Assembly: GCA_902763505.1 (NCBI GenBank)
Contig: CACWSO010000016.1
Location: forward strand, 1-49,408
Reading direction: 5' to 3'
Length of the DNA: 49,408 nt
Origin: an uncultured Eubacteriales bacterium
GTDB taxonomy: Bacteria; Bacillota; Clostridia; Peptostreptococcales; Anaerovoracaceae
The notes under the pieces were generated by a model. It was not told where the DNA came from. It did not search any database and saw only the letters and a program-made list of their open reading frames with translations. Of this stretch, positions 5,829-8,718 are shown one piece after another (within the stretch, counting starts at the first letter, position 1; every line of letters starts with the position of its first letter). The position numbers and the translations under genes are program-made.

Positions 5829-6692
5829 ATGGGAATCAGAGATGTTGTTGCCCGGATATTTGAAGAGATATCCGAGGCGGTTTTTCCGTCTAATATTTAT
5901 TGTATCAAATGCGGCAGCCTGATCGACAGGAGCCGCATTTATGCACTCTGCGATCGATGCGTCAGGGAGATGCATTGGATTACCGGGGGCACCTGCGACT
6001 GCTGCGGCAAAGCGCTGCCGGATACTTACCGTGGTGTAGGCCCGGACGGCAGGCGACTTTGTTACGATTGCATGATGCGTGATCATTCTTTCACGAAGGG
6101 TTGGAGCTGCCTGAGTTACGGTCTTCACGAACGTGAACTCATGATGGACATCAAGTACAACGGCAAAGGCTACATCGCCAGCAAGATGGGAGATGTCATG
6201 TTCGACCGAATGGAGACACTCATCGACGCGGCTCGAGAAGGGGATTCCAGCGCCTTTCCGTCTATTGATGTGATTATTCCGGTTCCAGTGAGTGGGAAGC
6301 GGATGGTCAAGAGAGGATACAACCAGTCGGAGCTCATGGCACGGCAGTTTCTGCGCAGGTGGAAACAGCATCTGCATAACTATGCGACTGGGGATGCGCC
6401 GGGTATCTCTGTACCGAGACTCGAGCCCCATGTGCTCGTGCGGCAGAAAGCAACGGTGATGCTGCGCAGCCTAAATCCGGAGGAACGGAGACTTGCGCTG
6501 CATGATGCTTTTGCAGTCAATCCGGATTTGCGCGGACGAATCGAGGGCAAAAACATATTGCTGATAGACGATATATATACGACTGGCGCCACAGCAGACG
6601 CATGCAGCAAGGTGTTGCTGGAAGAAGGCGCTGCGGCGGTCTACCTGCTCACACTTTGCTCAGGAGGTAATCGGAAACCAAAGGATGAGTAA
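5829..6692 (+). CDS. comFC: ComF family phosphoribosyltransferase-like protein
   Basis: This 287-residue protein has a Cys-rich N-terminus (CIKCGSL, LCDRCVRE, CDCCGKAL, CYDCMM), the double zinc-finger of ComF proteins. A type I phosphoribosyltransferase-like domain follows, with IIPVPVSGKRMVKRGYNQSE and the PRPP-binding loop LLIDDIYTTGATADAC near residue 245. In Bacillus and relatives ComFC is needed for uptake or processing of transforming DNA together with ComFA. No ComFA helicase is adjacent here, though recD2 lies two genes upstream. The length is slightly above the usual 220-240 because of the Cys-rich part and a short insertion (about residues 180-200). A dedicated hpf promoter follows the gene. 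Confidence 0.9.
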   Translation: MGIRDVVARIFEEISEAVFPSNIYCIKCGSLIDRSRIYALCDRCVREMHWITGGTCDCCGKALPDTYRGVGPDGRRLCYDCMMRDHSFTKGWSCLSYGLHERELMMDIKYNGKGYIASKMGDVMFDRMETLIDAAREGDSSAFPSIDVIIPVPVSGKRMVKRGYNQSELMARQFLRRWKQHLHNYATGDAPGISVPRLEPHVLVRQKATVMLRSLNPEERRLALHDAFAVNPDLRGRIEGKNILLIDDIYTTGATADACSKVLLEEGAAAVYLLTLCSGGNRKPKDE

Positions 6693-6742
6693 GAGGACTG
6701 CAGGTTCTTGCGAAATGGATACAATTACCCTATTGTTTCACA

Positions 6743-6771
6743 TTGTAAGGTTTGGCTAACTGTGGTACAAT
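6743..6771 (+). promoter_or_regulatory. Sigma-A-type promoter of hpf
   Basis: TTGTAA and TACAAT are separated by exactly 17 bp. The predicted start near 6778 lies downstream of an earlier in-frame ATG, so translation must begin at the later ATG at 6818. Confidence 0.72.
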
Positions 6772-6817
6772 GAATAAAAAGCGACACAAGGTATTGTGTC
6801 TGAAGGAGGTTGTTATT

Positions 6818-7345
6818 ATGAAAACTGTTATAACCGGCAAGAATTATGCTCCTAGCGAGAAACTTAAGGAAACCATCGAGAAGAAGTTCGCGAAGCTGGA
6901 CAAGTACTTCTCAGATGAAATCACGGCAAACGTAATGACAATTAAAGAGAAGAGCAGGTATAAGGTCGAAGCAACGATCAATACGAAGGGTACGATCTTC
7001 AGAGCAGAAACCATCTCAGGGGATCCGTATGACTGCGTAGACCGCTGCATCGAGAAACTCTCCACTCAGATGAGCAAGTTCAAGACAAAGCTCCAGAAAA
7101 AGTACAAAGGCCAGAAGGACTTTGGTTTTGAGGAACTGCCTGAGTTCGAAGAAGAGCAGGAAGAGATCAACGTCGTAAGATCCAAGAAGTTCCAGCTTGA
7201 GCCGATGAACGTAGAAGAGGCGATCATGCAGATGGAAATGCTGAACCACGACTTCTTCGTATACCTCAACATGGAAACAGATTCCGTAAACGTCGTTTAT
7301 AAGAGAAAAGACGGAAATTACGGATTGCTGGAAACAACCTATTAA
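6818..7345 (+). CDS. hpf: Ribosome hibernation promoting factor, long form
   Basis: This 175-residue protein has the N-terminal S30AE/RaiA fold (residues 1-100: MKTVITGKNYAPSEKLKETI, then KLDKYF and VEATINTKG). The C-terminal dimerisation domain is at about 120-175 (VVRSKKFQLEPMNVEEAIMQ, FFVYLNMETDSVNVVYKRKD). Long HPF binds idle 70S ribosomes and pairs them into 100S dimers in stationary phase. The ATG at 6818 is chosen because a strong GAAGGAGG site lies 8 bases before it and because the promoter places transcription start after the earlier in-frame ATG at 6752. It is monocistronic, with its own promoter and terminator. A minus-strand RNA gene converges on it. Confidence 0.95.
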   Translation: MKTVITGKNYAPSEKLKETIEKKFAKLDKYFSDEITANVMTIKEKSRYKVEATINTKGTIFRAETISGDPYDCVDRCIEKLSTQMSKFKTKLQKKYKGQKDFGFEELPEFEEEQEEINVVRSKKFQLEPMNVEEAIMQMEMLNHDFFVYLNMETDSVNVVYKRKDGNYGLLETTY

Positions 7346-7372
7346 TTCGCAAGCCGAACAAACGGAACAACA

Positions 7373-7396
7373 GGAGACCCGAAAGGGTCTCCTTTT
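7373..7396 (+). terminator. Terminator of hpf
   Basis: An 8-bp perfect stem GGAGACCC/GGGTCTCC with a GAAA tetraloop is followed by TTTT. It sits 28 bases after the hpf stop. Confidence 0.88.
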
Positions 7397-7431
7397 AAGT
7401 CTTGTGATACGTTTTACGATTAGTCCAGCAA

Positions 7432-7646
7432 TAAAAAACGCTCTGCATATGACCCAGCTGACCTGATCTTTGCCCCCACACTCGCCTTGGCCGGGATTTT
7501 CCCGAGGACTTACTTCTAAACTACGCCATGATTGCCGCTTACTCTTCTTCAGCGGTTTACGTGGGACCTTTTGCCCGTAGCTGGCCTGGCCTTTCAATCA
7601 CAGACCTGGATCATATGCAGAGCATTTCTGCTTTGTATTTGTTGCC
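7432..7646 (-). ncRNA. Structured small RNA convergent with hpf (raiA-motif or 6S-like candidate)
   Basis: On the minus strand a complete small-RNA gene is visible. A consensus promoter lies upstream, and about 215 nt of non-coding sequence are closed by an 18-bp terminal stem (7440-7457 with 7606-7623; GCTCTGCATATGA core, one G-U pair). The 3' arm runs straight into six T residues, as in a terminator. Inside are a CCGCT/AGCGG hairpin (7535-7555), a CGGGA/TCCCG hairpin (7491-7504) and a long-range CTACG/CGTAG pairing (7576-7580 with 7521-7525), which suggests a branched fold. The size fits the raiA RNA motif, known from Firmicutes near raiA/hpf genes, and also 6S RNA, though 6S is usually rod-shaped. 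SRP RNA, tmRNA and RNase P signatures were not found. That it is an RNA gene is well supported; the family is not settled. Confidence 0.7.
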
Positions 7647-7651
7647 TTTGG

Positions 7652-7681
7652 ATTATACGACAGGGTCAGGGGATTTGGCAA
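7652..7681 (-). promoter_or_regulatory. Promoter of the minus-strand RNA gene
   Basis: Read on the minus strand, TTGCCA (7676-7681) and a perfect TATAAT (7652-7657) are spaced by 18 bp. The predicted start is at G 7645/7646, 22 bases before the RNA's terminal stem. Confidence 0.75.
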
Positions 7682-7728
7682 GAGGCATTAAAATCATTAA
7701 TATTCATTAACAATCGATAGGTATTCAG

Positions 7729-7758
7729 TTGAAAACACACCACTAAATATAGTACAAT
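7729..7758 (+). promoter_or_regulatory. Promoter of the cdaA-cdaR-glmM-glmS operon
   Basis: TTGAAA and TACAAT are 18 bp apart, with a predicted start near 7765 and the cdaA ATG 27 bases further on. This rules out the GTG at 7762 as the start codon. Confidence 0.7.
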
Positions 7759-7791
7759 ATAGTGACGAATTATACACAGCAGGGAGACGAA

Positions 7792-8718
7792 ATGAACGAT
7801 ATTATTCAGTTTTTTGTGAATATTTTCTCGGATTTTGAGATATCAGACGCGGTAGATATTATTATCGTTACTTTTGTTGTGTATTATCTGCTCAAACTCA
7901 TTTTGGAGACCCGTGCCCAGCAGATTATCAAGGGAATTCTTGTGCTGGTGGGAGCGACCTTTGTTTCTGATGTTTTGGAACTGCATACCCTGAACTGGAT
8001 GTGCAAGGGGGCACTGACTTTGGGAGCCGTTGCGGTGCTGATTGTGCTGCAACCGGAGCTTAGAAGGGCGTTGGAATTCATGGGACGAGGCCGTATCGTC
8101 AGCGGCATCGGAAGCGGAAACAAGGAGAGCAGCAAGAGAGCGGTCGAAGCAATCACCGATGCTGTGGAGAAGTTCAGCAGTGAGAAGACCGGGGCGCTCA
8201 TCGTATTCGAAAGACAGACGATGCTGGAGGATTATGCAGAGACAGGAACGGTGCTGGACGCCTTCATATCTTCACAGCTTCTCGGCAATATCTTCTATGA
8301 GGGATCACCGCTCCATGACGGTGCTGTGATAATTTCCGGGACAAAGATCTATGCGGCAGGATGCGTCCTTCCTCTATCCACAAACAGAAACATCAGCAAG
8401 GAACTCGGCACACGCCACAGAGCGGGCCTCGGAATCACTGAAAACTCCGATGCAGTGACACTGATTGTTTCTGAAGAGACCGGGATCATCAGCATGGCAG
8501 AAGACGGAAAGCTGGAGCGCTTTCTCGATACCAAGACTGTCGAGAAGAGGCTGTTGGATATTTACCTGAACAACAGAGCAATCGGAGGAAAGATATCTAA
8601 TATTTCAAAGGTTCGTTCAAGACTGGACAAAACAGCCGATGACATGACCAAGAGAAACGAATTGGTTTACGGAAAGTCAAACAGCAGCCGGGGAAAGGAG
8701 GACGACGATGAAAAGTAA
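7792..8718 (+). CDS. cdaA: Diadenylate cyclase CdaA (c-di-AMP synthase)
   Basis: This membrane enzyme of 308 residues joins two ATP into cyclic di-AMP. About the first 90 residues hold three hydrophobic helices (IIVTFVVYYLLKLIL, GILVLVGATFV, LTLGAVAVLIVLQ). The DAC domain follows, with its two signatures LHDGAVIISG (near 173) and RHRAGLG (near 207) intact, and then TLIVSEETG. The ATG at 7792 is chosen for its GGGAGACGA site and the promoter position. The last codons overlap cdaR by 11 bases, as in other Firmicutes operons where CdaR regulates CdaA and GlmM binds it. c-di-AMP controls potassium and osmolyte transport. Confidence 0.96.
   Translation: MNDIIQFFVNIFSDFEISDAVDIIIVTFVVYYLLKLILETRAQQIIKGILVLVGATFVSDVLELHTLNWMCKGALTLGAVAVLIVLQPELRRALEFMGRGRIVSGIGSGNKESSKRAVEAITDAVEKFSSEKTGALIVFERQTMLEDYAETGTVLDAFISSQLLGNIFYEGSPLHDGAVIISGTKIYAAGCVLPLSTNRNISKELGTRHRAGLGITENSDAVTLIVSEETGIISMAEDGKLERFLDTKTVEKRLLDIYLNNRAIGGKISNISKVRSRLDKTADDMTKRNELVYGKSNSSRGKEDDDEK

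What the first reader, a model, noticed from the sequence alone, without database searches (positions are those of the whole stretch)
7432..7681. Complete small-RNA gene on the minus strand, convergent with hpf
A consensus promoter, a 215-nt non-coding body, an 18-bp closing stem and a T run are all present on the strand opposite hpf and cdaA. The raiA motif RNA is named for its association with raiA/hpf genes, usually upstream and co-directional. Here the RNA is downstream and opposed. If it is raiA RNA the arrangement is unusual; if 6S RNA, its branched fold is unusual; otherwise it may be a new class.
Basis: partly seen in the sequence, partly recalled or inferred. Interest (0 to 1): 0.75.

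Follow-up and report, generated by a model that had tools for sequence, protein, structure and literature searches.

The report
raiA (ModT) RNA facing hpf

Summary
Window 7449-7614 (minus) matches Rfam raiA (RF03072, ModT) end to end, 131 bits against a gathering score of 101, E 4e-32. It is not 6S RNA: that gene lies on another contig. It is not a new class. Facing hpf is uncommon, not unique: of 37 genus genomes with hpf in reach, 31 are co-directional and 6 convergent, 3 of these arranged like the window; a review notes opposite orientations (PMC11477304, passage). P6 is the published short 'variant 1' (PMC11751092, section 11). What I did not find in the passages and sections read: in this bacterial family the closing helix P1 runs about 10-15 bp beyond the Rfam model, with strong covariation, rarely seen outside the family, and a U tract sits at its base in 22 of 42 genus loci against 3-7 at downstream control offsets, with no local hairpin in the window. 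P1 may therefore double as the intrinsic terminator. The RNA persists in 15 genomes at least 90% complete with neither Spo0A nor GGDEF hits, which argues against sporulation or c-di-GMP synthesis as its general role.

The parts
7676..7681 (-). -35 box TTGCCA
7652..7657 (-). -10 box TATAAT, spacer 18; predicted start of transcription near 7645 (inferred)
7449..7614 (-). raiA/ModT RNA core, RF03072 model positions 1-209, 131.1 bits
7615..7629 (-). 5' arm of the P1 extension (15 pairs outside the Rfam model)
7434..7448 (-). 3' arm of the P1 extension, running into the U tract
7606..7614 (-). P1a 5' arm, pairs with 7449-7457
7576..7582 (-). pk-1 5' half (P3 loop AGCUACG), pairs with 7519-7525
   Evidence: pk-1 described in PMC11751092 section 11
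7519..7525 (-). pk-1 3' half (pk-loop CGUAGUU)
7485..7507 (-). short P6 stem-loop (variant 1), in place of the P6/P7/P8 domain
   Evidence: variant named in PMC11751092
7433..7438 (-). U tract at the base of P1, proposed intrinsic terminator tail
6818..7345 (+). hpf, long-form ribosome hibernation factor (PF02482 + PF16321)
7369..7396 (.). hairpin behind hpf, likely its terminator; on the minus strand a possible stop for read-through raiA transcripts (inferred)
5829..6692 (+). comFC-like gene (double zinc ribbon PF18912; phosphoribosyltransferase match just below its cut-off)
7792..8718 (+). cdaA, c-di-AMP synthase (PF02457, PF19293), divergent from the RNA

Best explanation
The feature is a stand-alone raiA (ModT) RNA gene. 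A housekeeping-type promoter makes a transcript of about 214 nt that folds into the compact raiA core: P1, the P3 arm, the seven-pair pseudoknot pk-1, P4/P5 and a short P6. In this family P1 is lengthened (in the window to about 24-27 bp) and often ends in a U tract, so closing P1 probably also terminates transcription. The RNA acts in trans, most likely as a folded RNA or RNA-protein particle that tunes the exit from exponential growth, as reported for other species; it does not act in cis on hpf, which it faces. Shown here: family identity, conserved structure, covarying long P1, U tract at its base, promoter-like sequence, arrangement. Inferred: transcription, termination through P1, trans action, particle. 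The confidence below is for the identity as a stand-alone raiA RNA gene; for termination through P1 I give about 0.55, for the particle acting on growth transition about 0.5.
For: RF03072 match 131.1 bits, complete 1-209. Match in 45 of 49 genus genomes (44 over cut-off) and 131 of 148 sampled family genomes (130 over cut-off). Covariation: 93.3% of cells paired against 74.4% shuffled and at most 45.0% when slid; pk-1 100% paired with changes on both sides at 4 of 7 pairs. P1 extension of at least 8 bp: 38 of 42 genus, 73 of 101 other variant-1 and 6 of 8 variant-2 members of the family, against 0 of 7 from other families of the order, 3 of 42 from other orders of the class, 0 of 22 in the phylum sample. 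U tract (6 or more T in 8) at the stem base in 22 of 42 genus and 44 of 109 other family loci; five downstream control offsets 3-7 and 3-17, a 5'-flank control 0 and 12. No local hairpin in the window: z +1.46 for the last 76 nt. Distance of the -10 box grows with the extension in the 42 of 154 family loci where a strict scan finds a promoter (rho 0.57, p 8e-5). In print: sigma-A promoter, trans complementation (PMC11706538, sections read).
Against: No expression data for this organism. 20 of 42 genus and 65 of 109 other family loci lack a strong U tract at the stem base. A first, stricter measure that counted only letters after the last pair was weaker: 5 or more T in 8 in 14 of 42 genus, 27 of 109 family and 9 of 49 class loci; I then widened the window to include paired U. 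In 12 of 69 other family loci with a tract a stable local hairpin precedes it. With a start about 6 nt past the -10 box, the whole extension is transcribed in 31 of those 42 loci, not all; within the genus alone the correlation is not significant (9 loci, rho 0.39, p 0.3). A-rich 5' flanks can inflate the outermost A-U pairs. Mismatched partners give 8 bp or more in 25.5% of genus and 27.3% of variant-2 cases because the sequences are related (2.1% in the diverse family set). The molecular mechanism of raiA RNA is unknown.
Confidence: 0.9

Rival explanations
1. The RNA is a cis-acting element (riboswitch) for hpf or cdaA, as the Rfam type label 'Cis-reg; riboswitch' would suggest.
For: Rfam label; it most often sits upstream of hpf: 109 co-directional of 121 family loci with hpf in reach.
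Against: Here it is downstream of hpf on the opposite strand, has its own promoter-like sequence, ends in a U tract before hpf, and is divergent from cdaA. Trans complementation in print (PMC11706538, discussion part 1).
Confidence: 0.02
2. It is 6S RNA with a branched fold.
For: Long closed stem and size.
Against: No 6S match in 7300-7780 at E up to 10; the genome has a 6S RNA at G000:C1:101878-102057, 77.7 bits.
Confidence: 0.005
3. Its main local role is to control hpf by convergent transcription or antisense read-through.
For: The 3' ends face each other with one strong hairpin between them; convergent forms sit on separate branches of a quick tree read by eye.
Against: Most relatives with hpf in reach are co-directional, and many loci have no hpf in reach; the U tract should stop most transcripts (inferred).
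Confidence: 0.04
4. P1 is long only for stability or to protect the ends from nucleases; the 3' end is made by Rho, by processing, or at the hpf hairpin.
For: 20 of 42 genus loci lack a clear U tract; a strong hairpin follows about 40 nt later; the first, stricter U count was weak.
Against: U enrichment lies at the stem base in the family and is not seen at the short P1 of the class sample (8 of 49, downstream controls 7-17).
Confidence: 0.35

Closest known systems
raiA motif RNA / ModT, Rfam RF03072
   Same: Full-length match, P1, P3, pk-1, P4/P5, invariant loop letters, own promoter-like sequence, comFC and hpf as neighbours.
   Different: Faces hpf; P1 lengthened by about 15 bp and running into a U tract.
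raiA variant 1 (short P6; 32% of sequences in PMC11751092, section 11)
   Same: P6 region of 21-23 nt in 44 of 45 genus members (1 not detected).
   Different: Nothing that I can see in P6.
ModT of Clostridioides difficile
   Same: Same core, housekeeping-type promoter; short isoform of 215 nt.
   Different: C. difficile has P7/P8 and a second 3' end making a 260-nt isoform (PMC11706538, sections 6, 7); here the only later hairpin I see is the one behind hpf.
6S RNA, RF00013
   Same: Size and a closed long stem.
   Different: No model match; separate 6S gene in this genome.

Membership tests
raiA / ModT RNA (RF03072) | Covariance-model score at or above gathering (101.3) | tested here: met
   131.1 bits, model 1-209, E 4e-32
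raiA / ModT RNA (RF03072) | P1, P3, P4/P5 helices conserved and covarying | tested here: met
   61 relatives. P4 (3 of 3 pairs) and P3b (2 of 3) never vary, so they are compatible but not tested; the two innermost P5 pairs are weak (24 and 14 unpaired rows)
raiA / ModT RNA (RF03072) | Pseudoknot pk-1, seven pairs between P3 loop and pk-loop | tested here: met
   100% of cells paired, changes on both sides at 4 of 7 pairs
raiA / ModT RNA (RF03072) | Pseudoknot pk-2 and tertiary contacts | not tested
   Two pairs only in print; not counted here
raiA / ModT RNA (RF03072) | P6 as variant 1 or variant 2 | tested here: met
   Variant 1 by length and helices P6a/P6b
raiA / ModT RNA (RF03072) | Own sigma-A type promoter | tested here: met
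   11 of 12 letters; a sequence match only
raiA / ModT RNA (RF03072) | Abundant, stable, trans-acting transcript | not testable with these tools
   Needs RNA-seq, northern blot, deletion and complementation
6S RNA (RF00013) | Covariance-model match | tested here: not met
   No match in 7300-7780 at E up to 10; 6S elsewhere

The most novel reading that the evidence does not exclude
In this bacterial family the raiA RNA is its own terminator: the U tract only stops RNA polymerase when the 5' and 3' ends of the finished RNA have paired across a folded core of about 150 nt. Release would then be coupled to correct folding, a built-in quality check, and misfolded copies would read through toward the hpf hairpin (into hpf antisense where the genes converge).
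Probability: 0.35. Interest if true: 0.6.

Novelty: new variant of a known kind. Interest (0 to 1): 0.42.

Why it matters
raiA/ModT is reported among the most abundant RNAs in some clostridia, has solved structures, and still has no known molecular job. This locus adds three usable constraints: it is placed where it cannot act in cis on hpf; its family keeps it in genomes with neither Spo0A nor GGDEF hits, so sporulation and c-di-GMP may be local outputs rather than its core role; and its natural variants (short P6, long P1, and a 110-121 nt form seen in passing) point to which parts of the fold are dispensable.

Tried and rejected
6S RNA and new class: rejected. Short P6 as a new discovery: dropped after reading that it is variant 1 in print. 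Loss of P7/P8 tied to loss of sporulation: not tested directly, since the variant-2 members form one clade (FastTree support 1.0) and give too few events; raiA presence is not associated with Spo0A or GGDEF among 85 good genomes (Fisher p 0.65 and 0.17; only 5 of the 85 lack raiA, so the test is weak). P1 lengthening as compensation for the lost P7/P8: not supported, since 6 of 8 variant-2 members of the family have it too. Inverted repeats with one arm on each side of the hpf-raiA pair, as a cause of the flips: none in window 6650-7830 at 11 nt or more. A regex finder for raiA cores found only 22 of 192 sequences and was replaced by the Infernal coordinates. A first cdaA reference had the wrong frame, corrected. 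The hairpin-type terminator scan finds nothing at the 3' end, as expected for a loop of about 150 nt. Two class RNAs counted with a short P6 region (L177, L180) are 201-207 nt long and probably mis-detected by my pattern.

Rows left out: of 131 family hits, 110 were fetched, 3 were genus members already held, 18 were not fetched; of 51 hits outside the family, 50 were fetched; the covariation alignment used 61 of 118 eligible RNAs of 160-168 nt (about every second one, window first). Two partial hits (G034, G161) are below cut-off; G034 is kept in the 45, among the 8 without hpf in reach.

Full report
What is there. On the minus strand, TTGCCA-18-TATAAT (7681-7652) is followed by a region whose ends pair over 24 bp counting G-U and stop in a T run at 7438-7433. 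The only Rfam match at gathering score in the 49-kb window is RF03072, raiA RNA, at 7449-7614 minus, 131.1 bits (gathering 101.3), E 4.1e-32, end to end. At E up to 10 the three other hits in 7300-7780 are far below their cut-offs. The window genome has one copy of this stretch and a separate 6S RNA. Neighbours: a comFC-like gene, hpf (PF02482, PF16321), then cdaA (PF02457).

Conservation. RF03072 is found in 45 of 49 genomes of the genus (44 over cut-off), 131 of 148 sampled genomes of the family (130 over cut-off), 57 of 291 of the class sample (6 of these belong to the same family) and 34 of 299 of the phylum sample (25 over cut-off). An exact-pattern scan of named genomes gave two metagenome-assembled records, a 'Clostridiales bacterium isolate SIG260' and a 'Bacillota bacterium isolate RGIG2549 Goat_Jejunum-6'; their contig lengths equal those of G006:C36 and G010:C59.

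Structure. I placed the helices of the published cryo-EM fold (PMC11751092, section 11 read; positions matched by me from the text and the Rfam line) on the window sequence and counted pairs on 61 relatives. 93.3% of 3748 cells pair (shuffled 74.4%; slid by 1-3 columns 31.8-45.0%), 47 of 62 pairs have changes on both sides, and the covariation score is 0.551 against 0.195 shuffled and at most 0.119 slid. All seven pk-1 pairs hold in all 61 rows. P4 and two of three P3b pairs never vary and so say nothing. The two innermost P5 pairs are poor in this alignment (24 and 14 rows unpaired).

P6. The RNA lacks about 43 model positions. The P6 region measures 21-23 nt in 44 of 45 genus members (1 not detected). 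In the other 110 family members 86 are at most 37 nt, 7 are 51-89 nt (one of these holds a run of N), 17 were not detected by my pattern. In the 50 class RNAs outside the family 26 are 51-89 nt, 4 are 139 nt or more, 2 read as 23-24 nt (probably mis-detected) and 18 were not detected. The short form is the 'variant 1' stem-loop that PMC11751092 gives as 32% of raiA sequences. Eight family members with RNAs of 206-207 nt keep the long form and form one clade (FastTree support 1.0).

Long P1 and the terminator. Outside the Rfam model the two flanks keep pairing. In 42 genus loci, pairs -1 to -13 form in 81-98% of rows, with changes on both sides at every one; in 109 loci of other genera of the family, 72-93% over the same 13 pairs against shuffled means of 39-59%. 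Extension of at least 8 bp: genus 38 of 42, other variant-1 family members 73 of 101, variant-2 clade 6 of 8; other families of the order 0 of 7, other orders of the class 3 of 42, phylum sample 0 of 22. Mismatched-partner controls give 25.5% in the genus and 27.3% in the variant-2 clade (close relatives) but 2.1% in the diverse variant-1 set, so that set is the stronger evidence.

At the stem base a U tract (6 or more T in 8) is present in 22 of 42 genus and 44 of 109 other family loci; at five downstream control offsets the counts are 3-7 and 3-17, in a 5'-flank control 0 and 12. In the class sample, with its short P1, the base is not enriched (8 of 49; downstream controls 7-17, highest 30-40 nt downstream; 5' flank 3). 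A first, stricter count of only the letters after the last pair was weaker: 5 or more T in 8 in 14 of 42, 27 of 109 and 9 of 49. A stable local hairpin precedes the tract (5 or more T) in only 2 of 29 genus and 12 of 69 other family loci, and the window's last 76 nt fold worse than shuffles (z +1.46). A strict scan finds a promoter in 42 of 154 family loci; there the -10 box moves outward with the extension (rho 0.57, p 8e-5; 33 class loci, rho 0.01). It lies outside the extension in 39 of 42 and at least 6 nt outside in 31 of 42; within the genus alone (9 loci) the trend is not significant. I conclude that the lengthened P1 is transcribed in most members where this can be judged and, in many, is probably the terminator stem. 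I did not find this in what I read: sections 4, 6, 7, 10 and part 1 of 11 plus passages of PMC11706538, section 11 plus passages of PMC11751092, passages of PMC12286853 and PMC11477304. The synteny paper (Soares et al., PNAS 2024) is not held and I have not read it.

Arrangement. The usual order is comFC> raiA> hpf> and, in this family, often cdaA>. With hpf in reach (flanks of up to 1.5-4 kb): genus 31 co-directional, 3 'comFC> raiA> <hpf cdaA>', 3 'comFC> hpf> <raiA cdaA>' as in the window; hpf not in reach in 8 of 45. Other genera of the family: 78 co-directional, 3 convergent, 3 with hpf upstream and divergent, 26 not in reach. Class outside the family: 35 co-directional, 15 not in reach. 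Phylum sample: hpf in reach in 6 of 28 loci outside the family, all 6 co-directional. The two convergent orders are inversions of each other as a unit. On a quick tree they fall on separate branches: G000/G006 with G010 (whose contig ends before hpf), G035, and G020/G029/G031 (topology read by eye, no test). A review says the motif is 'sometimes in the opposite orientation' (PMC11477304, passage), and the ModT authors note variable orientation and distance (PMC11706538, introduction). A flipped gene with its own promoter-like sequence and U tract fits a trans-acting RNA.

Function. In print, deletion in C. difficile delays the transition to stationary phase, lowers sporulation and raises c-di-GMP; of four orthologues tested, two complement fully and two in part (PMC11706538, sections 10 and 11 part 1). 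Here, among 85 family genomes at least 90% complete and at most 5% contaminated, 80 have raiA; 29 of 30 without any Spo0A_C hit and 28 of 28 without a GGDEF hit still have it, and 15 have raiA with neither. The window genome has GGDEF (3 hits) but no Spo0A_C hit. So sporulation and c-di-GMP synthesis are unlikely to be the general function; a more basic growth-transition role is likelier. Absence in a draft genome can be a gap, but 15 such genomes make gaps an unlikely full explanation.

Verdict. A now identified member of a known family in an uncommon orientation, with one feature worth a specialist's time: a family-wide, covarying long P1 that probably ends transcription of the RNA it closes.

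Noticed in passing
L238, L239, L240, L242, L246-L260 (match begins near base 1501 of each locus): A 110-121 nt 'mini-raiA': end-to-end but sub-threshold RF03072 matches (38.9-58.9 bits, gathering 101.3) in 19 of 26 genomes of one class (families f114 and f165); 3 other genomes of that class (families f187, f194) have full-length forms, 4 no match. P1, the P3 arm and apparent pk-1 halves remain; the P6 domain and the GAGTGTGGGGGCAAA stretch are gone. A TATAAT-like box lies just upstream in all 18 loci whose upstream letters were printed, and an open frame of 101-107 aa starts 21-41 nt downstream in all 19; the one piece tested matches PF13451 (treble clef domain). Aligned; covariation not counted.
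   Followed up: partly
window 7449-7614: Rfam types raiA as 'Cis-reg; riboswitch', which does not fit an RNA with its own promoter-like sequence that faces its neighbour.
   Followed up: yes
window 7792-8718 and relatives: cdaA (c-di-AMP synthase) lies in the flank of the RNA in 23 of 30 genus and 78 of 110 other family loci but in 0 of 50 class loci (flanks of 1.5 or 3 kb).
   Followed up: no
L182, L186-L188, L191: raiA RNAs of 337-348 nt in family f45; in the three measured (L182, L187, L191) the P6 region is 200-210 nt.
   Followed up: no
window 7016-7597 (minus): A 193-aa open frame runs antisense to hpf and across the RNA; most likely chance, since the RNA part is under structural constraint.
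   Followed up: no
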